Part shown: positions 5,685 to 28,707 of the stretch, piece after piece
How positions within the stretch are numbered: position 1 is the first letter of the stretch
How the letters are laid out: each line of letters starts with the position of its first letter
Source of the DNA: Kiritimatiellia bacterium
GTDB taxonomy: Bacteria > Verrucomicrobiota > Kiritimatiellia > CAIQIC01 > Lenti-01
DNA length: 64,000 nucleotides
Reading direction: 5' to 3'
Assembly (NCBI GenBank): GCA_017527155.1
Contig: JAFXQI010000012.1
Coordinates: 1 to 64,000 of the forward strand
Notes under the pieces: generated by a model
What the model saw: the letters and a program-made list of their open reading frames with translations, nothing else
Told to the model about the DNA's origin: nothing
The model's database searches: none
Position numbers and translations under genes: made by a program

Positions 5685-7367
5685 CTAGTTTTCCAGGGCT
5701 TGGGCCTCCTCCGCGGCGGGCGCGTCGAAGCTCCAGCTGCCGAGCCAGAGGAAGCGGAGGCGGCGCTCTCCGGGGGTGCGGTCCCAGGCGAGAAGGCCCT
5801 TGAGGAAGGACCAGTGGCGCTCGCCGCGCGGTTCGCTGCGGTCGTGGTCCCACAGGGGGAAGGCGCTGAAGCTGCGCGAGCCGTCGGCTTCGCAACGCTG
5901 GCGGTAGAGGCCCCAGAGGACGTCGAGTTCGGAGCGGCCCTCCTTCGCGCGGTAGTCGGCGAGGGTCCAGAGCGGTGCCCAGGAGCGCTCCACCGGCGCC
6001 GGATTCGGTCCGGGCCAGAGCTCCAGCGTGCGCCAGCGGATCTCGCCGGTGTCCACGTTCGACGCGTGCGACCAGAGCGGCCATACCTTGGTGCGCGTGG
6101 CGGTGATGCGGCGCGGACCGTCGTCGGCGGGCGGCGGCGGGGGCGCGGCGGCGGAATCGCCGTCGCCGTCCCCCGAACCGGGGGCGATGGCGGAGAAGAG
6201 GCTCCCGCGCTTCGGCTCCGGCGGCGGGTCGCCCACGGGCACGCTGGTGGTGACGCGGTTCCAGAAGGGTACCAGCGTCCAGCGCACGCGCTGCTCGCGG
6301 CCCACGCGGTTCTGCTCGCGGATGAGGAACGGCCAGGCCCAGAAGGTCCGCCGCAGGTCGCCGTCGGTGCGGGTGCCCCAGAACGGCCACACGTAGAGCC
6401 GCTGGCGGTACTTGCCGGTTTCGCGCTGGAAGAACGGCCACGGGCAGTAGAGGCGGGTCATCTGCTCGCCCTCCACGTACTGGAAGAGCGGCGGCAGCGC
6501 CATCCAGCCCTTCTGCGAATTGAGGTCCACGCGGCCGCATACCGGGAAGAGCACCCACGCCTTGCCGTTCGCCTTCGGGTGCGTGTACTCGGCCTGGTTC
6601 CAGAAGGGCCACATCACCGACTTCTTGACGAACTGGCGCTTGTTTTCGACGCGCGAATAGAACGGGAACACGCGCAGCTTGTCCCACTTGCCGTCATCGG
6701 AGAGGCCGCGCGAATAGATGGGCCAGAGGATGTCGGTGGTATGCAGGTCGTTGACGTCGCTCTCCATCCAGATGGGCCAGAGCACGAACGAAATGCGGTC
6801 CTTCCACAAAAAATCGCGCACCGTCCCGCCGAAGGGGAACAGCGCCGCGTACGACTGCCCCTCCGCCGTCTGCCCGCTCGCCCATACCGGAAGGACCCAC
6901 AGATGGTCCGCCTTCGACGTCGAGTCGGATGCATCCTTGTCGAACCCGAACACGTTCGCCACGCGCCACGACCGCTCGTCGCCGAACGTCTTCCCCGCCG
7001 CGACGGGCCAGCACGCATCCCAGTTGGTGCGCCCGCCGACCGGGTCGATGGCGCGGCTCCAGAAGGGCCGCACCGGCGCGAACAGCTCGGTGCCGTCCGG
7101 GGCGGTGGTGTGCTCGTAGAACGGCCCGGCGGCGCGGGTGCGGTCGGCGCCGTCGATGGACTCGAGATGCGAAGCGAATGCGCCGGCGTCCCACTCCCAC
7201 GGGAGGGGCCAGGCGGGGGGCTCGGGGGAACCGGCGGGGGGCTCGGGGGACGCCGCCGCGCGAGGCGGCGCGCAGAACCACGCGGAAAGGATGACCAGGG
7301 CGAGGGCGGAAGCTTTCCAATGATTGGAACATTCCGTTGGGGCGTGGATGGCGGTGGGGGTGTGCAT
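5685..7367 (-). CDS. Secreted WPFW-repeat protein of unknown function
   Basis: The 560-residue product has an N-terminal signal sequence after MHTPTAIHAPTE and then about fifteen short units, each ending in an aromatic-proline motif such as VRPFW, VLPVW, LWPIW, MWPFW, VWPFW, AWPFL, LVPFW, VWPLW or AFPLW. Units are spaced by roughly 20-35 residues, which suggests a beta-propeller or stacked-sheet fold in the periplasm or outer membrane. No known domain was recognised. The start at 7367 is preferred over an in-frame ATG about 96 nt upstream, because a promoter lies 7 nt before 7367 and the signal peptide follows directly. A copy of the TTTCCAAT-GATTGGAA palindrome lies inside the signal-peptide coding region (7314-7328). 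Confidence 0.75.
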   Translation of the reverse strand: MHTPTAIHAPTECSNHWKASALALVILSAWFCAPPRAAASPEPPAGSPEPPAWPLPWEWDAGAFASHLESIDGADRTRAAGPFYEHTTAPDGTELFAPVRPFWSRAIDPVGGRTNWDACWPVAAGKTFGDERSWRVANVFGFDKDASDSTSKADHLWVLPVWASGQTAEGQSYAALFPFGGTVRDFLWKDRISFVLWPIWMESDVNDLHTTDILWPIYSRGLSDDGKWDKLRVFPFYSRVENKRQFVKKSVMWPFWNQAEYTHPKANGKAWVLFPVCGRVDLNSQKGWMALPPLFQYVEGEQMTRLYCPWPFFQRETGKYRQRLYVWPFWGTRTDGDLRRTFWAWPFLIREQNRVGREQRVRWTLVPFWNRVTTSVPVGDPPPEPKRGSLFSAIAPGSGDGDGDSAAAPPPPPADDGPRRITATRTKVWPLWSHASNVDTGEIRWRTLELWPGPNPAPVERSWAPLWTLADYRAKEGRSELDVLWGLYRQRCEADGSRSFSAFPLWDHDRSEPRGERHWSFLKGLLAWDRTPGERRLRFLWLGSWSFDAPAAEEAQALEN

Positions 7368-7374
7368 GGGGAGA

Positions 7375-7404
7375 AGTGTAGCAACGGGGGGACGGGAGGG
7401 ACAA
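7375..7404 (-). promoter_or_regulatory. Leaderless promoter of the WPFW protein gene
   Basis: TTGTCC, 18-bp spacer, TACACT, then only 7 nt to the ATG at 7367; no ribosome-binding site. Confidence 0.6.
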
Positions 7405-7437
7405 GCGCGTTTTCGGAGGGCGGACGGCGGAAAAGTG

Positions 7438-7466
7438 TTGTCATCGGCGCGGAGTTGCCCCAAGAT
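7438..7466 (+). promoter_or_regulatory. Promoter of the exbB-exbD operon
   Basis: TTGTCA (7438-7443), 17-bp spacer, CAAGAT (7461-7466). The leader contains AAAAAGG, about 8 nt before the ATG at 7497. Confidence 0.55.
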
Positions 7467-7496
7467 GGGCGGTTGTCTTCAAAAAGGAAACCACGC

Positions 7497-8225
7497 ATGA
7501 AAACCCTCTTGAAATCCGCCGCCGGACTGCTTTCCATCCCCGCCTGCGCCCTCGCCACCGAGGCGGAGGCCGTCGCCGCCCCCGCGGGCCTGACGCCCGC
7601 GGAGCTGTTCCGCATCGGCGGGCCGCTGATGTACGTGCTGCTGGCGCTTTCGGTGGTGGGACTGGCCTTGATCGTGTATTACGCGGCGGTCCTCCGCACG
7701 GGCACCGTGGCGCCGGAAGCCCAGCGGGCCCGCCTCCGCGAGCTGCTTCTGGCCGGACGCGCCCGGGAGGCCCGCGCGCAGTGCGCGGACCGTCCGACGG
7801 CGCTCGGCCGCGTCGTCGCGGCCGGACTCGACTTCCTGGAGGACAACCCGGATGCGGGGGCGCCGGCGGTCCGGGAGGTCATGGAAAGCGAAGGGGTACG
7901 ACAGGCGGGGCGGATGCAGAGCCTCATCCACTACCTGATGGATTTGTCGTCGGTCGCGCCCATGGTCGGGCTGCTGGGAACGGTCGTGGGCATGCTGCGC
8001 GCGTTCAATTCGGTCGCCTTCGACATGGCCAAGGCCCGTCCGATGGAGCTGGCCGGCGGCGTGGGACAGGCGCTGATCACCACCATCGCCGGGTTGTGCG
8101 TGGCCATCCCCGCGCTGATCGCGTGGGCGGTCTTCCGCGGGCGCGTCGTCGCGCTGGTCGGCCGCCTGGAGACCGCGGTGGCCGAGCTGGCGGCGCTGCT
8201 GCCGCGCAAGGGGAGCCCGGAATGA
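7497..8225 (+). CDS. exbB: MotA/TolQ/ExbB proton channel family protein
   Basis: This 242-residue inner-membrane protein belongs to the ExbB/TolQ/MotA family, whose pentamers with ExbD/TolR dimers use the proton-motive force to power outer-membrane transport or cell-envelope work. A signal-like segment (residues 1-20) precedes the first membrane helix near residues 43-65. The conserved 'SVAPMVGLLGTVVGMLRAF' helix comes near residues 150-168, and the last helix is ALITTIAGLCVAIPALIAW. The reading frame is open far upstream, but the start at 7497 fits both the ribosome-binding site and the signal segment. It overlaps exbD by ATGA. A TonB partner gene is not seen nearby, so Ton versus Tol function is undecided. 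Confidence 0.88.
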   Translation: MKTLLKSAAGLLSIPACALATEAEAVAAPAGLTPAELFRIGGPLMYVLLALSVVGLALIVYYAAVLRTGTVAPEAQRARLRELLLAGRAREARAQCADRPTALGRVVAAGLDFLEDNPDAGAPAVREVMESEGVRQAGRMQSLIHYLMDLSSVAPMVGLLGTVVGMLRAFNSVAFDMAKARPMELAGGVGQALITTIAGLCVAIPALIAWAVFRGRVVALVGRLETAVAELAALLPRKGSPE

Positions 8226-8635
8226 ACTTCCTCAAGGCCGATCCGACCGCCGTGCAGGGCGGAGTGCCGCTCACGCCGATGATGGATGTGGTGTTCCTGC
8301 TGCTGTGCTTCTTCGTGACCAGCCAGATTTTCGCGCAGTGGGAGACGGAAATCGACGTGACGCTCCCCACCGCCGAGACGGGCGAGATCCCGCAGCGGCT
8401 GCCGGGCGAGGTCATCGTCAACGTGCTGCCCGACGGGCGTACCGTGGTCAACGGGCAGGACCTCGACGACGAGGCCCTGCGCGGGATGCTGGCGCGCCTG
8501 GTGGAGCTGTTTCCCGGCCAGCCGGTGCTGCTGCGGGCGGACAAGACGACGCCCTACGAGCATGTGGTGCGGGTGCTGGATTTCTGCCGCCAGGCGGATC
8601 TCTGGAACGTGTCGTTCGCGACGCTGGCTCCGTGA
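8222..8635 (+). CDS. exbD: ExbD/TolR family biopolymer transport protein
   Basis: This 137-residue protein has a short cytoplasmic N-terminus, a single membrane helix starting TPMMDVVFLLLCFFVTSQIF near residues 18-37 and a periplasmic domain. The aspartate in 'MMDVVF' is the conserved proton-carrying residue of ExbD/TolR. The ATG overlaps the exbB stop codon (ATGA), a translational coupling typical of this pair. The periplasmic part contains VNVLPDGRTVVNGQ and VLLRADKTTPYEHVVRVLDFCRQA, matching the ExbD fold. It should form the energising complex with the ExbB-type protein encoded just upstream. Confidence 0.9.
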   Translation: MNFLKADPTAVQGGVPLTPMMDVVFLLLCFFVTSQIFAQWETEIDVTLPTAETGEIPQRLPGEVIVNVLPDGRTVVNGQDLDDEALRGMLARLVELFPGQPVLLRADKTTPYEHVVRVLDFCRQADLWNVSFATLAP

Positions 8636-9017
8636 CAACCGGGAAGGGGAGGGGGGACACGAGAGACGAGTGACGAGATGCGGCGGGCCCGCGCCGCGGG
8701 CCGTCGCCGGCCCCGGGGAGTGGGTCCTGGCAGGGACCGTGGGATTGGGGGAACCTCCCGTGGTTTGGGCCATGCGCGCGGGGCGGGAAATTGTCCCGGT
8801 CGGGGAAATGAAATTTTCCAAGCGTTGAAAACTGTTCCGTGGAGGCAGTCCCCATCCGGCCCGTCCGGAATCCTTTTTGAGATTACGGGAAACATTGGAT
8901 TTTCCGTCGGTTCTGCCATGCTCCGACGCCATGAAAGACACGGGGCGTTTTTCCTTGCGGAGTCCGGGGCCTTGCGGCATTCTGCATTGCAAGAGAAACG
9001 TATTGGAGGCCACCGCC
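8636..9017. other. Intergenic region with degenerate palindrome and one ATG-ended module
   Basis: No gene is seen in these 382 bp. A decayed copy of the TTTTCCAA...TTGAAAA palindrome lies at 8814-8831 and an ATG-ended module at 8873-8935. The last 35 bp (CAAGAGAAACGTATTGGAGG block) form the leader of the following gene and recur before its paralogue at 11582. Confidence 0.6.
8873..8935 (+). repeat. Dispersed ATG-ended module, copy 2
   Basis: GAGATTACGGGAAAC, then TTTTCC, CATGCT and CC-ATG-AA at 8929-8935. It points toward the downstream secreted protein gene, but the ATG is not that gene's likely start. Confidence 0.65.
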
Positions 9018-10847
9018 ATGAAATCCACCATCCGCAATGCCGTATTCGCGATCGCCGCCGCTTTCGCGATGGTCCCGACCGTGCGTGCCGACGGGCCCGC
9101 CGCCTTCGCGCAGGTCGAAATCCGCGGGCTCGATGCCTTGTTCGCCGCCGCCGACCGCATCGCCGCACCCTACGTCCCCGCCGGGCAGGCCAAGGGGATG
9201 TTCATCGGGGCTTGCAGCGCGCGCGCCGTCGATCCGTTCGAGGTCGTCGACGGGGAGGGGACCGTGCGCTGCGTGGTCTACGGCATAGATGATGACTGGG
9301 ATGTGCTGGTCGATTTCCCGGCGGCCGGTGGCGATGCGGCCGGCGCGCTCGGGAAGCTGGCGGAAGCGCTTCCCGCAGCGGATGTGCCGGACGGGATCGT
9401 TCTCCCCGAAGGGGCCCTGTCGTTGCTCACCGGCGGCTTCTCCCTCTCCGGCACGCTCTGCATCCCCCGCGGGGAGCGCATCGCGCTGGTGCCCCATTCC
9501 GCGTTCGCGCACGATGTCCGCGACGTGGACGGAGCCCTCGCCCTGCTCGATGCCGCGCCGGACGTGCCCGCCGGTGGCGTGCTGGCCGCGGCCGTCGATT
9601 TCGGGGCCGTGCTGCCGCTCCTCGCCAAGTGCAGGGCGGGGACGAGCGGCGCGCAGTTGCGCGAGCGGCTGTCGGATTCCTCGTTCCCCGTCCGCGCCCT
9701 CGCCCTCGGGATCGGACTCGACGAGGCCAACCGCTTCCGCACCGATTGGTCGGTCGCGTACGTCCCCGACTCCCCACAGGCGCGCCACGGCTCGGGCATC
9801 GGGGCCCCCGTCTCGCCGCTCGCGAACGCCATCCTCTTCCCCGACGCCGTGGCGGCGGGCACCTACCACGGGGAGTTGTCCGGCATCTCCGACGACGAAC
9901 TCCGCGCTGTCCTGAACGGCAAAAACGGCTTGGCCTCCGTCGCCGGGGAGGACGACCCGCGGACCGCCGCCGTGCGCGACGCACTGGCCGCCGCCTACAT
10001 CCCGTTCCTCCGGATGCTCGGCGACGAGTTCGCCGTTGCCTATCTCCCCGCGGGCGAAGGGGAGGAGGGCGGCGGCTCCGCCCTGCTCTCGTTCCCCGCC
10101 GACCCGCAGGCCGCCCTCGACGGGGTGCCCGACTGCTTCAACGGGATGATTGGCGCGTTCGCCGATGCCCGCCGCTCTGCCGCCGACGATGACGACGATG
10201 TTCCCGACGTGGTCGACGCTTTGTCCCGCCTCCGCGTCGAGCCCGCCGGCGAACGGTCGGTGAGGGAGACGTCGGTGCGCCGCTATGTCGTGCGCCTGGA
10301 GGGGGAGGACGAGACGCCGGCGCGCGATTACGGGGCCTTCGAGGCCGCGGCCGCCGGACCCGCGCTGTACCTCGGGACGCTTCCCGACGGCCGCCTCGGC
10401 GACGTCCTCGCCGACCTCGCCGCCGGACATACCGCGAAGGGGCCGGTCGCCGCGATGCCGGCCTTCGCCGCCGCCTACGGGGAAGCGCCCGAAGGGGCCG
10501 CCTGCGGCTATGTGCGCCTGCGGCCGGCGCTCCGCGCGATCCTGCCCAAGCTCCAGGCTTTTGTCGACAACGTGATTGCCGAGGACGAAACCGGCATCGT
10601 CCCCGCCACCGCTGCGGCGCTCGCCGGAGTCGCGACCGCCTTCGCCAACGACCCCGCGCTCCCGGACATCACCCTGGCCTCGACCCAGCGCTGGCTCCCC
10701 GAGGGGGCCCGGCTGGAAAGCGTCGTTTCGATGCCGCTGTCGGATTTCCATGTTGCCATCGACGCCATCAGCAAGGCCGCGATTGCGATCCGTACCGGTG
10801 TCGCCGGGGTCGCCCATTCCGGTCGCCCCGGTTCCGCCGGGCGGTAA
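9018..10847 (+). CDS. Secreted protein of unknown family, tandem paralogue 1
   Basis: The 609-residue product has a signal peptide (MKSTIRNAVFAIAAAFAMVPTVRA) and is otherwise a soluble, Ala/Asp-rich protein with no recognised domain. Residues 25-80 (ADGPAAFAQVEIRGLDALF...) and a C-terminal block (PALYLGTLPDGRLGDVLADL...CGYVRLRPALRAILP) are nearly identical to the tandem neighbour at 11582, while the central part has diverged. The overall look, with a long alternation of short strands and helices and repeated LRVEP/VRRY elements, recalls bacterial periplasmic proteins of PVC bacteria, but no function can be given. The start at 9018 follows GGAGG and the signal peptide; an upstream in-frame ATG belongs to the ATG-ended module. 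Confidence 0.78.
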   Translation: MKSTIRNAVFAIAAAFAMVPTVRADGPAAFAQVEIRGLDALFAAADRIAAPYVPAGQAKGMFIGACSARAVDPFEVVDGEGTVRCVVYGIDDDWDVLVDFPAAGGDAAGALGKLAEALPAADVPDGIVLPEGALSLLTGGFSLSGTLCIPRGERIALVPHSAFAHDVRDVDGALALLDAAPDVPAGGVLAAAVDFGAVLPLLAKCRAGTSGAQLRERLSDSSFPVRALALGIGLDEANRFRTDWSVAYVPDSPQARHGSGIGAPVSPLANAILFPDAVAAGTYHGELSGISDDELRAVLNGKNGLASVAGEDDPRTAAVRDALAAAYIPFLRMLGDEFAVAYLPAGEGEEGGGSALLSFPADPQAALDGVPDCFNGMIGAFADARRSAADDDDDVPDVVDALSRLRVEPAGERSVRETSVRRYVVRLEGEDETPARDYGAFEAAAAGPALYLGTLPDGRLGDVLADLAAGHTAKGPVAAMPAFAAAYGEAPEGAACGYVRLRPALRAILPKLQAFVDNVIAEDETGIVPATAAALAGVATAFANDPALPDITLASTQRWLPEGARLESVVSMPLSDFHVAIDAISKAAIAIRTGVAGVAHSGRPGSAGR

Positions 10848-19614: not shown

Positions 19615-20094
19615 TCAGGAGGGGAAGACGAAGCGGTAGGCGGGGAGGGCGAGGTAGGGGGCGGGGGCGGGGTCGGGGTGCCAGCCGGCGGAGCGGAAGG
19701 CGGCGAGGGAGGGGGCGTTTTCGATGCGGACCCAGGCGGTCATGGGGCGGGGGTCGGGGTGCAGGAGGAGGTGATGGCGGGTGCCGTCGTTGATGAGGGG
19801 GGCGGAGAGGTGGCGGCCGCGGCAGGGGGGGGCGAGGTAGACGCTGATTTCGGGTTCGCCAAGGTGGTTGTCTTCGAAGCGGACGTAGCCGGCGGGGAGG
19901 CCGTCGTGTTCGGCGATGTAGAGGTGGCGGGTGGTGCCGAGGAGGGTTGTTTTATACCACTTCTGGTGGGTTTCCCAGGGGATGGGTTCGTGGGTGCGGA
20001 AGGTGTGCGCGAGGAGGGCCGGGTCGTTGGCCCAGGTCCAGACGAGGCGGCAGTCGGAGTCGGTGGCGGGGCGGAAGGTGAGGGGATTGTTCAT
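19615..20094 (-). CDS. GNAT family N-acetyltransferase
   Basis: This 159-residue protein has the GNAT fold pattern: MNNPLTFRPATDSDCRLVWTWANDP at the N-terminus, the central strand GYVRFEDNHLGEPEISVYLAPPCRGRHLSAPLI with the acetyl-CoA pyrophosphate loop (CRGRHLSAP), and WVRIENAPSLAAFRSAGW near residue 125. This subtype resembles the acetyltransferases that modify sugar or antibiotic amines (Acetyltransf_3 type). It is the last gene of a four-gene envelope operon, 9 bp after ArnD, so an amino sugar on lipid A or LPS is a plausible substrate. That role is inferred only from position. Confidence 0.78.
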   Translation of the reverse strand: MNNPLTFRPATDSDCRLVWTWANDPALLAHTFRTHEPIPWETHQKWYKTTLLGTTRHLYIAEHDGLPAGYVRFEDNHLGEPEISVYLAPPCRGRHLSAPLINDGTRHHLLLHPDPRPMTAWVRIENAPSLAAFRSAGWHPDPAPAPYLALPAYRFVFPS

Positions 20095-21166: not shown

Positions 21167-23329
21167 TCATTCTTGGGTGTAGGTGGGCGGGGTGTCGAGG
21201 GTCCAGCGGACGGTGAGGGGGGAGGCGGAGGGGCGGGTGAAACGGAGGGTGCGGGTGCCGTCGGGGGTGGTTTGGATGCCGGTGCCGTCGTAGGTGGCGG
21301 AGGAGAGGTTGGCGAGGAGGGTGCGGAGGGCGTGGTAGGCGGGGCGGGGGCGGCGGGCGGCGGGGTCGGTGTCGTCGACGAGGCCGAAGCCGCGGGCGGC
21401 CAGGCGGAACCAGTGGACGCGTGTGACGTGTCCGGAGGCCAGGGCGAGGAGAAGGTAGCGGGCCATGTAGGCGGCGTAGTTTTCTTCGGTGACGGAAGGG
21501 TCGTTGCGGCGCGGGTCGAGGGTTTCGTAGGGGGAGGTGACGGGGGACCAGGGTCCGGTGCCGAGCAGGGGCCAGTTGGTTTCGGTGATGGCGATGCGGT
21601 CGGTCGGAAAACCGTGGACGCGGGCGGCGGCGCGCAGGAGGGCGCATTTGGCGACGAGGTCGAAGCGTCCCTGGAAGGCTTCGGGGGGGCCGCGGCGGTC
21701 GACGTACAAATGGTGGGAGAGGGCGGCGAAGGGGAGGGGCTTCTTTATCGCGTGGAGGAAGGCGAGGAGGGCGTGGGGTTCGAAGTCGATGCAGGCGGGG
21801 CCGATGGTCACGGCGCGGGGGCGGGCGGCGGAGAGGATGTCGCGGACGGGGGCGAGGAGGGTTTCGATTTCGCGCGGGTCCCAGAGGCCCCATTTGCAGC
21901 GGTTGACGGCGTGGCCGATCTCGATGGCGTCGGCCCAGTCGGAGGCGCGGGAATAGGCGAGTTCGACGAGGGTGCGCCAGGTGCCGGGGTCGGTGATGGC
22001 GCGTCGGGACTGGAGGAGGGCGAGGGTGATCGGGTGTCCGGCGCGGCGGAGTTCGCCGGCGCGGTCGAGGGTCCAGTTCCAGTGGTCGGGGCCGAGGTGG
22101 TGGTGGAGGCGGAGAAGGACGGGCAGGGGGGCGGCGCCGGGCGGGCGGAGGCCGTCGAGTTCGGCGAATTGGGGGGACCAGGTGGCGGGGTCGGGGTCGA
22201 GGGTGACGCCGATGGCGCCCGCGAAAGGGACGGGGGTGCGGAAGGATTCGGCGAGCAGGCGGTGGTATTCGCGGCGGAGGGGGAGTCCGCGGCGAAAGGC
22301 CCCGGCGAGGGCGCAGGTGACGTTGGCGTTGGAGAGGTAGCGGTGGCGGTCGCGGGAGGTGTAGGCGGGGATGGGTTGTGAGGAGCGGTCGTCCCAGATC
22401 CAGAGGTCGCGGCCGCGGGTGCGGGGCGGGGCGGTTCCGGCGGCGCGGGCGGCGGCTTCGGCGCGGCGGATGCGGGCTTCGCGGATGGGGTGGCGGTAGG
22501 GGCGCAGGGCGGTGTGGCGGGCGAAGGCGGCGCGGGTCTTGGCTTCGGCGCGCAGGAGGGTTTTGGACGGGGTGTAGCCGCGGTTGTACATGGCCAAAAA
22601 GACGCGGCGGAAGTCGCTCGGCAGGTCGAGGCGGGCGAGGTCGGCCCCGCGCTGGGCGTCGGTGGGGGCCGGGTCGCAGGCGCGCGCGCGGTTGAGGTCG
22701 AGGAAGAGAACGCGCCAGCCGTGCGGGGCGCCGGGGTCGCGCCGGAGGGGGATGTTCTGGTTGCCGAGGTCGCGGTGGACGAGGCCGGCGTCGTGGAAGG
22801 CGCGCACGGCGGTCGCGACGGCTTCGAGGAGGTCCATGAGGGGCGCGCAGAGGGGGGCCTCGGCGTAGATGCGTTCGAGTTCGGCGCGGAAGTCGGTGAG
22901 GCCGGGTTCGTACGCGGTCACGAGGCGGCTTTCGAGGAGGCGTCCGGTGCGCGGGTCGCGGCGTTCGAGGGCCGCCAGGGGCGCGGGGGTGCCGACGGCG
23001 GCGTCCTGCAGGCGGCGGGCGTTCAGGAAGGCGCGCACGGCCTTGCCCGCGATGCCGAGACGGCGGGCGGCGGCGTCGCGCCAGGCGGGGACGGGGCCGT
23101 AGGTTTTGACGACGAGGTCGTGCGGGCCGCCGCCGGGCAGGTCGTCGGGGGAGAGGATGATGCGGTCGAGGCGGTGGCGTCCGGGGGGACAGAGGAGGGT
23201 GCCGTGTGCGGCGAGGAGGTCGCCGAGGCGCGGGGCCAGCGGGCGCCAGGCGTCGGCGGGGGCGTCCGGGGTGAGCCACAGGGTCCAGCCGCCGGGGGCG
23301 TCGAGCCGCTGGTGGGCGGGGTCGGTCAT
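21167..23329 (-). CDS. LPS-type kinase fused to a glycoside hydrolase-like TIM barrel
   Basis: The 720-residue protein joins two domains. Residues 1-300 look like the Kdo/LPS kinase family (WaaP/KdkA type): K75 in VVKTYG, the catalytic loop HDAGLVHRDLGNQNI (D187, N192) and FLDLNRAR (D211) in place of DFG. Residues 306-720 resemble a clan A glycoside hydrolase barrel, with a likely acid/base in DAIEIGHAVNRCKWG (E470) and a likely nucleophile in AITETNWP (E583). The protein lacks a signal peptide. The start at 23329 overlaps the stop of the upstream glycosyltransferase gene (ATGA). A kinase that phosphorylates a core sugar combined with a glycosidase in one chain is unusual. Both assignments rest on motifs alone. 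Confidence 0.78.
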   Translation of the reverse strand: MTDPAHQRLDAPGGWTLWLTPDAPADAWRPLAPRLGDLLAAHGTLLCPPGRHRLDRIILSPDDLPGGGPHDLVVKTYGPVPAWRDAAARRLGIAGKAVRAFLNARRLQDAAVGTPAPLAALERRDPRTGRLLESRLVTAYEPGLTDFRAELERIYAEAPLCAPLMDLLEAVATAVRAFHDAGLVHRDLGNQNIPLRRDPGAPHGWRVLFLDLNRARACDPAPTDAQRGADLARLDLPSDFRRVFLAMYNRGYTPSKTLLRAEAKTRAAFARHTALRPYRHPIREARIRRAEAAARAAGTAPPRTRGRDLWIWDDRSSQPIPAYTSRDRHRYLSNANVTCALAGAFRRGLPLRREYHRLLAESFRTPVPFAGAIGVTLDPDPATWSPQFAELDGLRPPGAAPLPVLLRLHHHLGPDHWNWTLDRAGELRRAGHPITLALLQSRRAITDPGTWRTLVELAYSRASDWADAIEIGHAVNRCKWGLWDPREIETLLAPVRDILSAARPRAVTIGPACIDFEPHALLAFLHAIKKPLPFAALSHHLYVDRRGPPEAFQGRFDLVAKCALLRAAARVHGFPTDRIAITETNWPLLGTGPWSPVTSPYETLDPRRNDPSVTEENYAAYMARYLLLALASGHVTRVHWFRLAARGFGLVDDTDPAARRPRPAYHALRTLLANLSSATYDGTGIQTTPDGTRTLRFTRPSASPLTVRWTLDTPPTYTQE

Positions 23330-24126
23330 TTGGTCGGCTGGGCCTCGGCGGCGCGGCGCTGCTGCTCGATTTCCATGAGCTTGGCGTACTTGAGGAAGAC
23401 GCCGAAGGCCGAGATGTAGGCGACGATGAAGCCTTGCTTGCCGGACAGGAAGCCGCGCTTGAGGAAGTAGGATTTGAAGAAGCGCCAGGGCGGGCGGAAG
23501 AGGAGGTCGCGCCAGCGGAAGGGTTCGCCGTTGGCCGCCTTCTGCTTCGCCGAGATGGTCGAGAAGCGGTTGAGGGTGTTGATGTGGTCCGACATGTCGT
23601 CGTATGTGAAGTGGTGGAGCGGGGCCTTGAGCGTCTTGACGGGGCCGGTGACGATGACGCGGTCGTGGGGTTCCTGGCCGCCGCTGTAGCCGCAGTCCTT
23701 GCGGAAGAGGCGGAGCTTCATGTCGGGATACCACTCGCCGTGGCGGATCCATTTGCCGAGGTAGTGGACCATGCGCGGGAACTGGTAGCCGACCGTCTCG
23801 CCGGGGCCGCGCTCGAACTCGGCTTCAATCTCCTCGCGGAGCTCGTCGGAGACCACTTCGTCGGCGTCCACGAAGAGGATCCACGGGTAGTTGGCCAGGG
23901 AGCGGATGTAGTTCTTCTGCGCGATGTAGCCTTCCCAGGGGTGCTGGACGACGTTGGGGGTGTACTGCTTGCAGATCTCGAACGTCCGGTCCTTGCTGTA
24001 GGAATCGACGACGATGATCTCGTCGCACCATTGCAGGCTGGCGAGGCAGGCGGCGATCTTGTCTTCTTCGTTGCCGGCGGTGACGCAGGCGGAAATCTTG
24101 AGGGAAGGTGGACGCGGCTTTTTCAT
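23326..24126 (-). CDS. Glycosyltransferase family 2, WaaE/KdtX-like
   Basis: This 266-residue protein is a GT-A glycosyltransferase resembling the LPS-core transferases WaaE/KdtX. It starts KISACVTAGNEEDKIAACLASLQWCDEIIVVDSYSKDRT, has the DxD metal motif in LFVDADEVV and the family-typical 'YIAQKNYIRSLANYPW' and 'HGEWYPDMKLRLFRKDCG' segments. A hydrophobic stretch near residue 240 may anchor it to the membrane. It is the first gene of the envelope operon with the kinase-glycosidase, ArnD-like and GNAT genes. The start is uncertain: ATG at 24126 was chosen; ATGs at 24135 or 24138 are possible, and no ribosome-binding site is visible. Confidence 0.87.
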   Translation of the reverse strand: MKKPRPPSLKISACVTAGNEEDKIAACLASLQWCDEIIVVDSYSKDRTFEICKQYTPNVVQHPWEGYIAQKNYIRSLANYPWILFVDADEVVSDELREEIEAEFERGPGETVGYQFPRMVHYLGKWIRHGEWYPDMKLRLFRKDCGYSGGQEPHDRVIVTGPVKTLKAPLHHFTYDDMSDHINTLNRFSTISAKQKAANGEPFRWRDLLFRPPWRFFKSYFLKRGFLSGKQGFIVAYISAFGVFLKYAKLMEIEQQRRAAEAQPTK

Positions 24127-24200
24127 GTCCGGCATCATGCCGCGTCGCGGGCGCGCGGGCGAGAAAAAACGTGCGGCGCCCGCCGCCCGCCATGTCGTGC

Positions 24201-24255
24201 AATCACGTGAACCCGGAGAAATCACCCCGGATTCCGTCATGCTTTCCTCCATGAA
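24201..24255 (+). repeat. Dispersed ATG-ended module, shortened copy 6
   Basis: CACGTGAACCCGGAGAAATC, CATGCT, then CC-ATG-AAAAAC at 24249-24258. It is shorter than the other copies. Array C begins about 35 nt after its ATG. Confidence 0.55.
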
Positions 24256-24286
24256 AAACAGGGATGCGACGATAGGGCCTCGGATG

Positions 24287-24379
24287 TTTTCCAATGGTTG
24301 GAAAACTTTTTTCCAATGGTTGGAAAAATCGGTCGGGGTTTTCCAATGGTTGGAAAAAAAGTTTCCAATGGTTGGAAAA
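24287..24379. repeat. Palindrome array C (four TTTTCCAATGGTTGGAAAA units)
   Basis: Units are centred at 24296, 24318, 24348 and 24370: spacings 22, 30, 22 bp, identical to array A although the flanks are unrelated. All four cores read CCAATGGTTGG, which is the complement of the CCAACCATTGG core in other arrays. Confidence 0.92.
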
Positions 24380-26758: not shown

Positions 26759-28552
26759 TTACCAGACCACCGTTTCGTCCGCGCTGCCCGCCGCCGTGGC
26801 GTGCGCGCGGCGCGTGGCCGCCGAGGTGTCGCCCGGTTTCGGCTTCGGCTTGCCGGCGGGCGGCGAGGCCGGAGGCGGTTCCGGGGCGGGAACAGGAAGG
26901 GGCGCGAGGACCGGTGCAACCGGTTGGCGTGCGCTCACGCGCGGCACGAGCTTCGGACCGTCCGGGGCGGAGGGGCGCCGCGCCGCCGAGGCCGAGGCGT
27001 AGGGATCGGGCCGGGCCGGGTCGGCCGACGGCGGGGGCGGAGGCTCCGCCGCCCCCGCGGCGCCGCCGAAATCCACCGCGCGCCACGCGGCCCAGTCCAG
27101 GGGCATGTCGCCGCGCGAGACGGATGCCGACACCAGCAGTTTCTGCGGGTTCCCCAGCAGCGCCAGCGGCACCGTGATGCCCAGCTCGTTGCCGTAGAGT
27201 CCATCGGGTACCGCCACCGCGGACGCGTCGAGCTTGCGGTCCAGGTCCGTCACCGCTTTCACCTTGCCCGGGACCATCCGCACGAGGATTTTCGGCATCT
27301 GCCCGAACGGCACGTCCGGCCGCCAGCCGTAGAAACGCAGTTCCGCGGAGGCGCGCGCCGGCACCGGCCGCGAGAAGCGGCAGACCATCGTCAGGTTCCG
27401 GCCGTCCGACGAAATGCGCCGGTCGAGGAAGTCCAGATCGTCACCGCCGACCTGCGCTTCTTCGTCGTCCTGCTGGTCGGCGATCCTGCGCCAGGCCGGG
27501 TCTTCCGCCGCCAGGTCGTCGAGGAAGGCGTCGTCCTGCGCGCAGGCGCCGGTGTCGCCGTCTTCCAGTTCCTCCCGGCCGACGCCGCCCGGCAGCACGA
27601 TGTCGTCGAAGTCCCCGAACCACTCGCTCGTCCGCACGAAGGACGTCAGGTAGCCCGACGAATACAGGCACTGCGAGCGGTGCGCCTCCACCGCCGCCAG
27701 CTTGTTCGTCACCTGCCACGGCGCCAGCGAGAACACCTGCCAGCCGATTTCGTCCGATCCCGCCAGGAGCGGCGGCGGCGCGGCCTCCAGCTCCGGGTGC
27801 AGGCGGCGCGGCGCGGGCCAGCGGGAATAGTGGACCGGGTAGGCGAGGCGCTCGGGGGCGATGCCTTCCGCCGCCAGATCCCACAGCGCCACGCGCGCGA
27901 AGAGGTAGAGCGCCCGGTGGTCCACGTTGTGGTCCGCCGCGCTCGGCAGCGCCACGTGCGTCGGACGGAACTCGCGGATGACCTCCGTCAGGTCTTCCAG
28001 CAGATCCTCGCCCGCGTAGGCCGCGCCGGGGGTGCGGGCCTCGGGGTAGGGGACCGCCGTCGCGCGCGTCAGCATCGAGCGCAGCGGCGTCACGTCGCGC
28101 CAGTGGTCGTTCCAGATGTGCAGCGTCCCGAAATCGGGATAGCCCAGGAACACCAGGTCCGCCGACGGGTCCAGCCCCAGCCGCCGCGCCGCCTCCCGGG
28201 CCTCGCCCATGCGGACCTCGCCCATCCGCCGCACCGCGCCCGGCATCACCACCGGATGCTTGCGCACGAACAGGAACGCCAGCTCGTTGTTGTCGCCCAT
28301 CGTCAGGAAACACACCCTGACCGGAATCCCCAGCTCGACGGCCTCCTGGATGAGGCCGCCGGCGCCGATGGTCTCGTCGTCGGGATGCGGCGCCAGCACG
28401 AGCAGGCGCTCCTCCTCGTCGCCCAGCAGCAGCGGGTCGGCATCCGGCAGCGCCGCCGCGCGCGCCGCCGCCGCAGCCAGCACGCATGCCGCCGCGGCAA
28501 CCCCCAGCATCCGCCCCGCCCGATGGACCAACCGACACGTCTTCGTCTTCAT
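26759..28552 (-). CDS. Secreted PIG-L family deacetylase with C-terminal extension
   Basis: The 597-residue protein has a signal peptide (residues 1-33) and a PIG-L/LmbE deacetylase domain (about 48-330). The zinc motif is LVLAPHPDDETIGAGG (H56, D58, D59), with the second histidine pair in SAADHNVDHRAL. Such enzymes remove acetyl groups from N-acetylglucosamine-type substrates. A second region (about 385-500: RNLTMVCRFSRPVPARASAELRFYGW...) resembles a beta-sandwich. The final 90 residues are a Pro/Ala-rich linker ending in ADETVVW, similar to the last residues of the acidic repeat protein at 2743 (NEPVVW). Export implies work on envelope glycans. Confidence 0.86.
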   Translation of the reverse strand: MKTKTCRLVHRAGRMLGVAAAACVLAAAAARAAALPDADPLLLGDEEERLLVLAPHPDDETIGAGGLIQEAVELGIPVRVCFLTMGDNNELAFLFVRKHPVVMPGAVRRMGEVRMGEAREAARRLGLDPSADLVFLGYPDFGTLHIWNDHWRDVTPLRSMLTRATAVPYPEARTPGAAYAGEDLLEDLTEVIREFRPTHVALPSAADHNVDHRALYLFARVALWDLAAEGIAPERLAYPVHYSRWPAPRRLHPELEAAPPPLLAGSDEIGWQVFSLAPWQVTNKLAAVEAHRSQCLYSSGYLTSFVRTSEWFGDFDDIVLPGGVGREELEDGDTGACAQDDAFLDDLAAEDPAWRRIADQQDDEEAQVGGDDLDFLDRRISSDGRNLTMVCRFSRPVPARASAELRFYGWRPDVPFGQMPKILVRMVPGKVKAVTDLDRKLDASAVAVPDGLYGNELGITVPLALLGNPQKLLVSASVSRGDMPLDWAAWRAVDFGGAAGAAEPPPPPSADPARPDPYASASAARRPSAPDGPKLVPRVSARQPVAPVLAPLPVPAPEPPPASPPAGKPKPKPGDTSAATRRAHATAAGSADETVVW

Positions 28553-28558
28553 GCCCCC

Positions 28559-28586
28559 ACCATACAAAACGCCCATCCCGAAACAA
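28559..28586 (-). promoter_or_regulatory. Leaderless promoter of the PIG-L gene
   Basis: TTGTTT (28586-28581), 16-bp spacer, TATGGT (28564-28559), 6 nt (GGGGGC) to the ATG. Confidence 0.7.
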
Positions 28587-28663
28587 AGCCCAAATCCCCG
28601 CGGGCGCCGGGGCGGGGGTGCAGGAGGGTTGTGTGACTTCGGATGCCCGGTTGGGAAATTGGA

Positions 28664-28707
28664 TGCGGACGCCATTCAGCCGGAACTTGGGGAAACAGGC
28701 GTCCGCA
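28664..28707. repeat. Inverted repeat TGCGGACGCC / GGCGTCCGCA
   Basis: Ten-base arms separated by 24 bp in the gap between divergently placed gene ends. A single palindrome unit CCAATGGTTGG (centre 28815) lies further right. No gene is seen in 28553-28847. Confidence 0.6.

What the first reader, a model, noticed from the sequence alone, without database searches (positions are those of the whole stretch)
21167..23329. LPS kinase fused to a glycoside-hydrolase-like barrel in an envelope operon
One 720-residue chain contains a WaaP/KdkA-like kinase with the HRD-type loop (D187) and a clan A hydrolase-like barrel with two plausible catalytic glutamates (E470, E583). It is flanked by a WaaE-like transferase and an ArnD-like deformylase. 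A coupled trimming and phosphorylating enzyme for a core sugar would be new to me.
Basis: partly seen in the sequence, partly recalled or inferred. Interest (0 to 1): 0.66.

Follow-up and report, generated by a model that had tools for sequence, protein, structure and literature searches.

The report
Endotoxin kinase fused to lapsed sugar-cutter
In a little-known group of bacteria, a kinase that probably phosphorylates the sugar core of the outer-membrane lipopolysaccharide is permanently joined to a barrel descended from a sugar-cutting enzyme that has lost part of its cutting machinery, so the barrel probably recognises or remodels the same sugar chain.

Summary
One 720-residue ORF (21167-23329, minus strand) carries a Kdo/WaaP-family kinase (residues about 56-300) and a (beta/alpha)8 barrel (about 361-678). 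It is not an assembly error: all 17 genomes of its family match. Of 65 strong barrel matches in 387 phylum genomes, 52 lie behind a kinase in one frame, 8 lie in front of a kinase in one frame, 2 are separate adjacent genes, 1 has a lapsed kinase tail and 2 are cut by contig ends (with 15 and 27). In related orders the gene ends an LpxK, heptosyltransferase, WaaE-like operon. The nearest fold is PslG, a GH39 retaining glycosidase (Z 26, next 21.8).

E583 matches the PslG nucleophile Glu276 and is kept in 52 of 52 sequences. The acid-base place is A474, not E470 (never Glu or Asp in 52). In the reversed fusions both catalytic residues are gone while the pocket remains. A plain trimming hydrolase is therefore unlikely. 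Best reading: a core kinase with a glycosidase-derived domain that binds nascent lipid A-core. Still open: a natural acid-base-less retaining transferase. No paper on the fusion was found in the searches named.

The parts
21167..23329 (-). Whole gene: kinase-barrel fusion, 720 aa
   Evidence: Open frame, ATG start overlapping the stop of the upstream gene; same fusion in 17 of 17 family genomes
22430..23164 (-). Kinase domain, about residues 56-300 (K75, HRD D187, N192, D211)
   Evidence: Pfam Kdo (52 of 52 members); profile matches WaaP 6dfl_A E 2.8e-15; model of residues 1-330, pLDDT 80, WaaP Z 17.3 over 230 residues
22250..22429 (-). Linker, about residues 301-360, with conserved W310, W312, D313, S316, Q318
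   Evidence: Alignment of 52; mostly low pLDDT at 300-337 in the full model
21296..22249 (-). (beta/alpha)8 barrel, about residues 361-678, PslG-like
   Evidence: Model; PslG best by VIA-align, Z 26; no Pfam GH family
21170..21295 (-). C-terminal strands, residues 679-720, part of the match to PslG (aligned to residue 720)
22769..22771 (-). D187, kinase catalytic Asp (49 of 52)
21920..21922 (-).
21908..21910 (-). A474, at the place of the GH39 acid-base Glu (PslG Glu165); 50 A, 1 T, 1 C of 52
21581..21583 (-). E583, at the place of the GH39 nucleophile (PslG Glu276); 52 of 52
23326..24294 (-). Upstream GT2 glycosyltransferase, WaaE/KdtX-like (true start inside this ORF)
   Evidence: Pfam Glycos_transf_2; homologue directly upstream in all 10 of L021-L030
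20104..21030 (-). Downstream ArnD-like deformylase; not a conserved neighbour
   Evidence: NF011923 331 bits, cut-off 382; absent beside the fusion in the other loci

Best explanation
The protein is a cytoplasmic lipopolysaccharide inner-core sugar kinase (Kdo or heptose) fused to a glycan-recognition barrel that descends from a GH39/PslG-like retaining glycosidase and no longer works as an ordinary hydrolase. The barrel's groove, lined with conserved Arg, Lys, Asn, Gln and Trp, holds the anionic nascent lipid A-core. The kinase, in the same chain, phosphorylates a core sugar next to the glucose-type residue added by the WaaE-like enzyme. Shown by computation: the fusion, its recurrence in both orders, kinase family and catalytic residues, barrel fold and PslG kinship, loss of the acid-base residue, LPS operon. 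Inferred: the glycan bound, the sugar phosphorylated, the cytoplasmic place and the binding role.
For: Kinase: Pfam Kdo in 52 of 52; PDB WaaP by profile and by fold (Z 17.3, 3.9 A, 230 residues, 24% identity; tied with PRPK/Bud32 at Z 18.1); K75, D187, N192 and D211 in 49-50 of 52. Barrel: PslG Z 26 over 321 residues, 20-21% identity, next rows 21.8 or less; the reversed-order barrels alone find PslG by sequence (E 0.0021); profile-profile match to GH39-type proteins 96%. Loss of hydrolase chemistry: A474 at the acid-base place; in reversed fusions H or N replaces E583 and T replaces the acid-base. What all 60 barrels keep is a pocket: Q440, W451, N476, R477, W480, P511, D515, R545, P549, K561, W586 and G649 are invariant across both orders and the split form. 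Linkage: of 65 strong barrels, 52 kinase-barrel, 8 barrel-kinase, 2 adjacent, 1 with a lapsed kinase tail, 2 cut by contig ends. LPS setting: LpxK and heptosyltransferase by Pfam in L063 and L069, same clusters in L064, L077 and L086; own genome has WaaA (Glycos_transf_N) and 5 heptosyltransferase-family matches.
Against: E583 (52 of 52) and Y542 (52 of 52), at the places of the GH39 nucleophile and of an invariant GH39 tyrosine, argue that the kinase-barrel branch may still do covalent chemistry; a mere binder need not keep them. No binding or kinase assay exists. Substrate (Kdo, heptose or other) is not resolved: KdkA and RfaP models score 24.3 and 18.4 bits against cut-offs of 142 and 170. 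Reversed fusions sit beside GT4, O-antigen-ligase-type, PMT_2 and GT2 genes, which could mean another glycan.
Confidence: 0.45

Rival explanations
1. The barrel of the kinase-barrel branch is an active enzyme of unusual kind: E583 forms a covalent glycosyl intermediate, and no acid-base is needed because the leaving group is good (a sugar phosphate, nucleotide sugar or lipid diphosphate sugar), so that it acts as a retaining transferase or phosphorylase beside the kinase.
For: E583, N585, W586 and Y542 are invariant in 52 of 52 while the acid-base place is Ala, Thr or Cys in 52 of 52; basic residues R407, R442, R477, K479, R545, R546 and K561 are invariant, fit for phosphates. Precedent for a kinase joined to a glycosidase-fold enzyme around a sugar phosphate: TreS:Pep2 (PMC6509496, passages). 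Naturally acid-base-less retaining glycosidases (myrosinase) are recalled.
Against: The reversed fusions keep the pocket but not the nucleophile. No donor is known. The basic residues may bind Kdo carboxylates or core phosphates instead.
Confidence: 0.3
2. One reading: a true trimming glycosidase coupled to the kinase, with E470 and E583 as the acid-base/nucleophile pair.
For: Clan A-type barrel with PslG as nearest fold; E470 lies on strand 4 and E583 on strand 7; PslG itself takes part in making its own polysaccharide (PMC6813494, passages).
Against: E470 aligns with Gln161 of PslG, four residues before the acid-base, and is Q or F in 5 of 52. The model coordinates could not be measured here.
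Confidence: 0.12
3. The kinase phosphorylates a surface glycan other than the lipid A-core (capsule, O-antigen or exopolysaccharide sugar), and the barrel is the reader of that polymer.
For: Reversed fusions neighbour GT4, Wzy_C/ligase-type, PMT_2 and GT2 genes; PslG acts on exopolysaccharide.
Against: LpxK, heptosyltransferase and WaaE-like genes precede the kinase-barrel form in five loci, and the WaaE-like gene directly precedes it in all 10 of L021-L030.
Confidence: 0.1
4. An accidental fusion or a sequencing error joining two unrelated genes.
For: None found beyond the novelty of the pair.
Against: Recurs in 52 barrels as kinase-barrel and in 8 in the other order; purifying selection on both halves against the 95% identical sister (dN/dS about 0.25 kinase, 0.34 barrel).
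Confidence: 0.01

Closest known systems
WaaP/RfaP and KdkA (Kdo/WaaP kinase family, PF06293)
   Same: Kinase half: family profile, fold, catalytic residues, LPS operon setting
   Different: Carries a second, larger domain; far below the KdkA and RfaP equivalog cut-offs; substrate unknown
PslG of Pseudomonas aeruginosa (CAZy GH39)
   Same: Barrel fold with C-terminal strands, best structural match, nucleophile place, encoded among glycan-synthesis genes
   Different: Acid-base Glu replaced by Ala; joined to a kinase; no membrane segment apparent; about 20% identity
TreS:Pep2 (trehalose synthase and maltokinase, complex or fusion)
   Same: A glycosidase-fold enzyme paired with or fused to an APH-like sugar kinase (PMC6509496, passages; fold names recalled)
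   Different: TreS is GH13 and active (recalled) and the pathway is alpha-glucan; here GH39-like, acid-base lost, WaaP-type kinase, LPS genes

Membership tests
Kdo/WaaP kinase family (PF06293) | Profile match over the curated cut-off | tested here: met
   36 bits against 21.3; 52 of 52 relatives match at E 1 or better
Kdo/WaaP kinase family (PF06293) | Kinase catalytic residues (VVK Lys, HRD Asp, Asn, DFG-place Asp) | tested here: met
   K75 49, D187 49, N192 50, D211 50 of 52
Kdo/WaaP kinase family (PF06293) | Phosphorylates an LPS core sugar | not testable with these tools
   Needs an assay; operon context only
KdkA (NF002475) or RfaP (NF011703) equivalogs | Score over the equivalog cut-off | tested here: not met
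   24.3 of 142 and 18.4 of 170 bits
GH39 retaining glycosidases (PslG) | Barrel fold | tested here: met
   PslG Z 26, 3.2 A, 321 residues
GH39 retaining glycosidases (PslG) | Nucleophile Glu on strand 7 | tested here: met
   E583, 52 of 52; replaced by H or N in the reversed fusions
GH39 retaining glycosidases (PslG) | Acid-base Glu after strand 4 (NE motif) | tested here: not met
   A474: A 50, T 1, C 1 of 52, by two profile alignments
GH39 retaining glycosidases (PslG) | Match to the Pfam GH39 profile or any Pfam GH profile | tested here: not met
   No GH family for 60 barrels at E up to 10
ArnD (NF011923), neighbour gene | Score over the equivalog cut-off | tested here: not met
   331.2 of 382 bits: a close relative, not a safe member
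TreS:Pep2-like kinase-glycosidase pair | GH13 barrel and maltokinase | tested here: inconclusive
   Maltokinase appears among kinase fold rows at Z 13.3, below WaaP; GH13 was not listed for the barrel, which excludes nothing

The most novel reading that the evidence does not exclude
A natural glycosidase-derived retaining transferase that works without an acid-base residue: the barrel of the kinase-barrel branch uses E583 as nucleophile on a phosphate-activated sugar donor and adds (or moves) a sugar on lipid A-core, while the fused kinase phosphorylates the same core; the reversed fusions are its pseudoenzyme cousins that keep only binding.
Probability: 0.2. Interest if true: 0.85.

Novelty: new variant of a known kind. 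Interest (0 to 1): 0.55.

Why it matters
Core phosphates hold the outer membrane together (established knowledge). A whole group of bacteria seems to have welded the core kinase to a former glycosidase, in both orders, which says that the two acts belong together. It gives an undescribed barrel family (no Pfam or NCBIfam match) a setting and a testable role, and offers a natural case of a retaining-glycosidase site that has shed its acid-base residue but, in one branch, kept its nucleophile without exception.

Tried and rejected
Sequence search of the PDB with the single protein gave only kinases at E 0.08 or worse, and with the whole barrel profile nothing real; only the reversed-order barrels reached PslG. 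Foldseek by E-value ranked GH30 xylanases first with TMt about 0.53; PslG came out best only in the VIA-align second look, so the PslG kinship rests on that plus the sequence match. A PslG relative was needed to place the acid-base: a 59-residue PslG stretch copied found a Burkholderia protein, which matches PslG at 3.4e-25. One comparison was weak: hhalign of the seven reversed barrels against that protein gave only 5.9%. The full-length model was poor in the kinase half (pLDDT under 50 at 143-199 and 201-219); folding residues 1-330 alone gave a better one. The kinase's best fold rows are PRPK/Bud32, tied with WaaP. No matches in plasmids. Paper searches for the fusion or its parts: listings only for this purpose (passages of PMC1183210 were read and did not bear on it); none described it, but most subscription journals are not held. 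Neighbour genes were called by a home-made codon score, so gene starts and some small ORFs are uncertain.

Dropped before counts: rows with E above 1e-20 (16 of 82 rows, among them G316 and G352, whose degenerate barrels have no kinase nearby in L133 and L134). G152 was counted once though split over two rows by a frame break near a contig end. The 52-sequence alignment left out duplicates of the same genome, the partial L018 and all matches under 200 bits, so it holds only kinase-barrel forms; the three-way conservation statement uses the 60-row set, which lacks L015. A5 and A6 held 50 of 77 upstream and 30 of 44 downstream ORFs listed.

Full report
What is there. The frame 21167-23329 is on the minus strand and encodes 720 residues; the start overlaps the stop of the upstream glycosyltransferase gene as ATGA. 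The 861-residue ORF listed at the same place merely runs back into that gene. Pfam finds one family, Kdo/WaaP kinase, at residues 96-235. Nothing in Pfam or NCBIfam covers the second half. The genome (3.2 Mb, 114 contigs) is that of an uncultured bacterium. Its nearest named record is a contig of 'uncultured bacterium isolate RUG11196' (96% identical), and other relatives are titled Verrucomicrobia, Lentisphaerae, Kiritimatiellae, Spartobacteria or Opitutia. I infer Kiritimatiellae-like Verrucomicrobiota from those titles.

The fusion is real and old. All 17 genomes of the family match, 16 of them over most of the protein and one (G012) at residues 261-718 only. Among 337 genomes of the phylum 72 have some match; in a barrel-only search 77 of 387 do. 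Taking barrels at E 1e-20 or better (65 in 64 genomes), I classed each by scanning the loci with a kinase and a barrel profile (G314): 52 kinase-then-barrel in one frame, including the truncated G367, the degenerate G109 and G039 with a partial kinase match; 8 barrel-then-kinase in one frame, one of them cut in the kinase by a contig end; 2 adjacent separate genes (G235, G320); 1 barrel with a kinase-like tail that the profile no longer recognises (G202); and 2 cut off by contig ends (G349 C31, G152). No complete free-standing barrel was seen at that threshold. Two weaker ones (G316, G352) have no kinase nearby. Such recurrence in three arrangements is the strongest argument that the halves work on the same thing.

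Kinase half. A profile of 52 relatives finds Pseudomonas WaaP (6dfl_A) at E 2.8e-15 (species recalled). Residues 1-330 folded alone give pLDDT 80 and match PRPK/Bud32 (Z 18.1) and WaaP (Z 17.3, 3.9 A, 230 residues, 24% identity), which differ by less than 1. K75, D187, N192 and D211 are kept in 49-50 of 52, so I expect an active kinase. Equivalog scores for KdkA and RfaP are far below cut-off, so the sugar is open.

Barrel half. The model has strands at 373-377, 404-409, 434-439, 468-471, 507-514, 536-542, 579-585 and 635-642. In the VIA-align second look the three PslG entries lead with Z 25.8-26.1 over 321-326 residues at 20-21% identity, and the next row is 21.8; Foldseek alone put GH30 first. 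Independently, a sequence profile of seven reversed-order barrels finds PslG in the PDB at E 0.0021, its H-V-A-W-S lying on S-T-E-W-G-W-S of PslG. PslG is GH39, with Glu276 as nucleophile and Glu165 as acid-base (PMC11912335, passages; PMC6813494, passages).

Catalytic residues. A Burkholderia PslG relative (L098) aligns with PslG at 3.4e-25; chain positions 139 and 250 there are Glu165 and Glu276 (offset 26 for both). Profile alignment of 60 barrels to L098 (81.6%) and to six GH39-type proteins (96.3%) agree: E470-I-G-H-A474 lies on E-V-W-N-E, so the acid-base place is A474, and E583 lies on the nucleophile. In PslG the residue opposite E470 is Gln161, and PslG is active. In 52 fusions position 474 is A 50, T 1, C 1; position 470 is E 47, Q 4, F 1; position 583 is E 52; Y542 is Y 52. 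The reversed barrels read E-I-G-S-T-C-N-R-R-K-W and T-H-V-A-W-S or similar: both catalytic residues are gone. What stays invariant across all 60 barrels is Q440, W451, N476, R477, W480, P511, D515, R545, P549, K561, W586 and G649 (converted to full-length numbers). By the model's strand ends most of these lie just after strands 3 to 8, the face where clan A enzymes bind sugar.

Setting. The WaaE-like gene is directly upstream in all 10 of L021-L030 and one place further upstream in five loci of other families (15 loci of the 49 put to gene calling, of which 48 gave a main gene). Those five (L063, L064, L069, L077, L086) share a run of upstream clusters; Pfam names LpxK and heptosyltransferase in L063 and L069, the others by cluster only. 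An Rce1-like gene lies directly upstream in 8 loci. Around the reversed fusions are GT4, Wzy_C/ligase-type, PMT_2 and GT2 genes. The own genome has Glycos_transf_N (WaaA) and five heptosyltransferase-family matches, and no WaaY match. No stretch of P0002 is hydrophobic enough for a membrane helix (best 19-residue Kyte-Doolittle mean 1.37, best near the N-terminus 0.69), so I infer a cytoplasmic protein acting on nascent lipid A-core.

Selection. Against the sister genome (L021), dN/dS is about 0.25 in the kinase and 0.34 in the barrel. Over 1275 pairs of fusions the two halves' identities rise and fall together (r 0.76), and the barrel is slightly the more conserved (mean 0.475 against 0.434).

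Reading. The common denominator of the three arrangements is kinase plus a kept pocket, not kept hydrolase chemistry. Hence the best explanation is a core kinase with a glycosidase-derived recognition domain (0.45). The unfailing E583 and Y542 of the main branch leave real room for chemistry without an acid-base residue (0.3). A plain trimming enzyme with E470 as partner is unlikely (0.12). A kinase joined to a glycosidase-fold enzyme is not unheard of: TreS:Pep2 fusions occur in 96 bacterial and 6 archaeal species (PMC6509496, passage). They differ in fold family, kinase family and pathway.

Limits. Only one phylum could be searched, and it was sampled. Counts depend on incomplete genomes. 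The absence from print rests on open-licence papers and the searches named in Tried and rejected.

Noticed in passing
L059 (G109) 7534-9639 minus; L133 (G316) about 7699-9042; L134 (G352) about 5787-7151: Decayed cousins: in L059 the kinase HRD loop reads HGN and the barrel matches only in part; L133 and L134 are barrel-like proteins without either glutamate motif and without a kinase nearby.
   Followed up: partly
L063 7736-8713, L086 10205-11176 (minus), also L064, L066, L070, L076, L078, L080: An Rce1-like (CAAX protease family) membrane protein gene lies directly upstream of the fusion in 8 loci, often overlapping its start; its role beside an LPS kinase is unexplained.
   Followed up: partly
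window 26759-28675 minus: A PIG-L-type deacetylase with a long C-terminal extension and proline-rich tail sits a few genes upstream.
   Followed up: no
window 19615-20094 minus: A small PseH-like acetyltransferase follows the ArnD-like gene, suggesting a local amino-sugar modification pair.
   Followed up: no
L060, L061, L033 (family f53): Small genomes (1.6-2.1 Mb) of another class in the phylum carry the fusion at 43-46% identity, which may be horizontal transfer.
   Followed up: no
L129 2190-3332 plus and 7156-8289 plus; L130: Genome G349 holds both a kinase-barrel fusion (L130) and a reversed-type barrel at a contig end, with a further kinase-like ORF near by.
   Followed up: no
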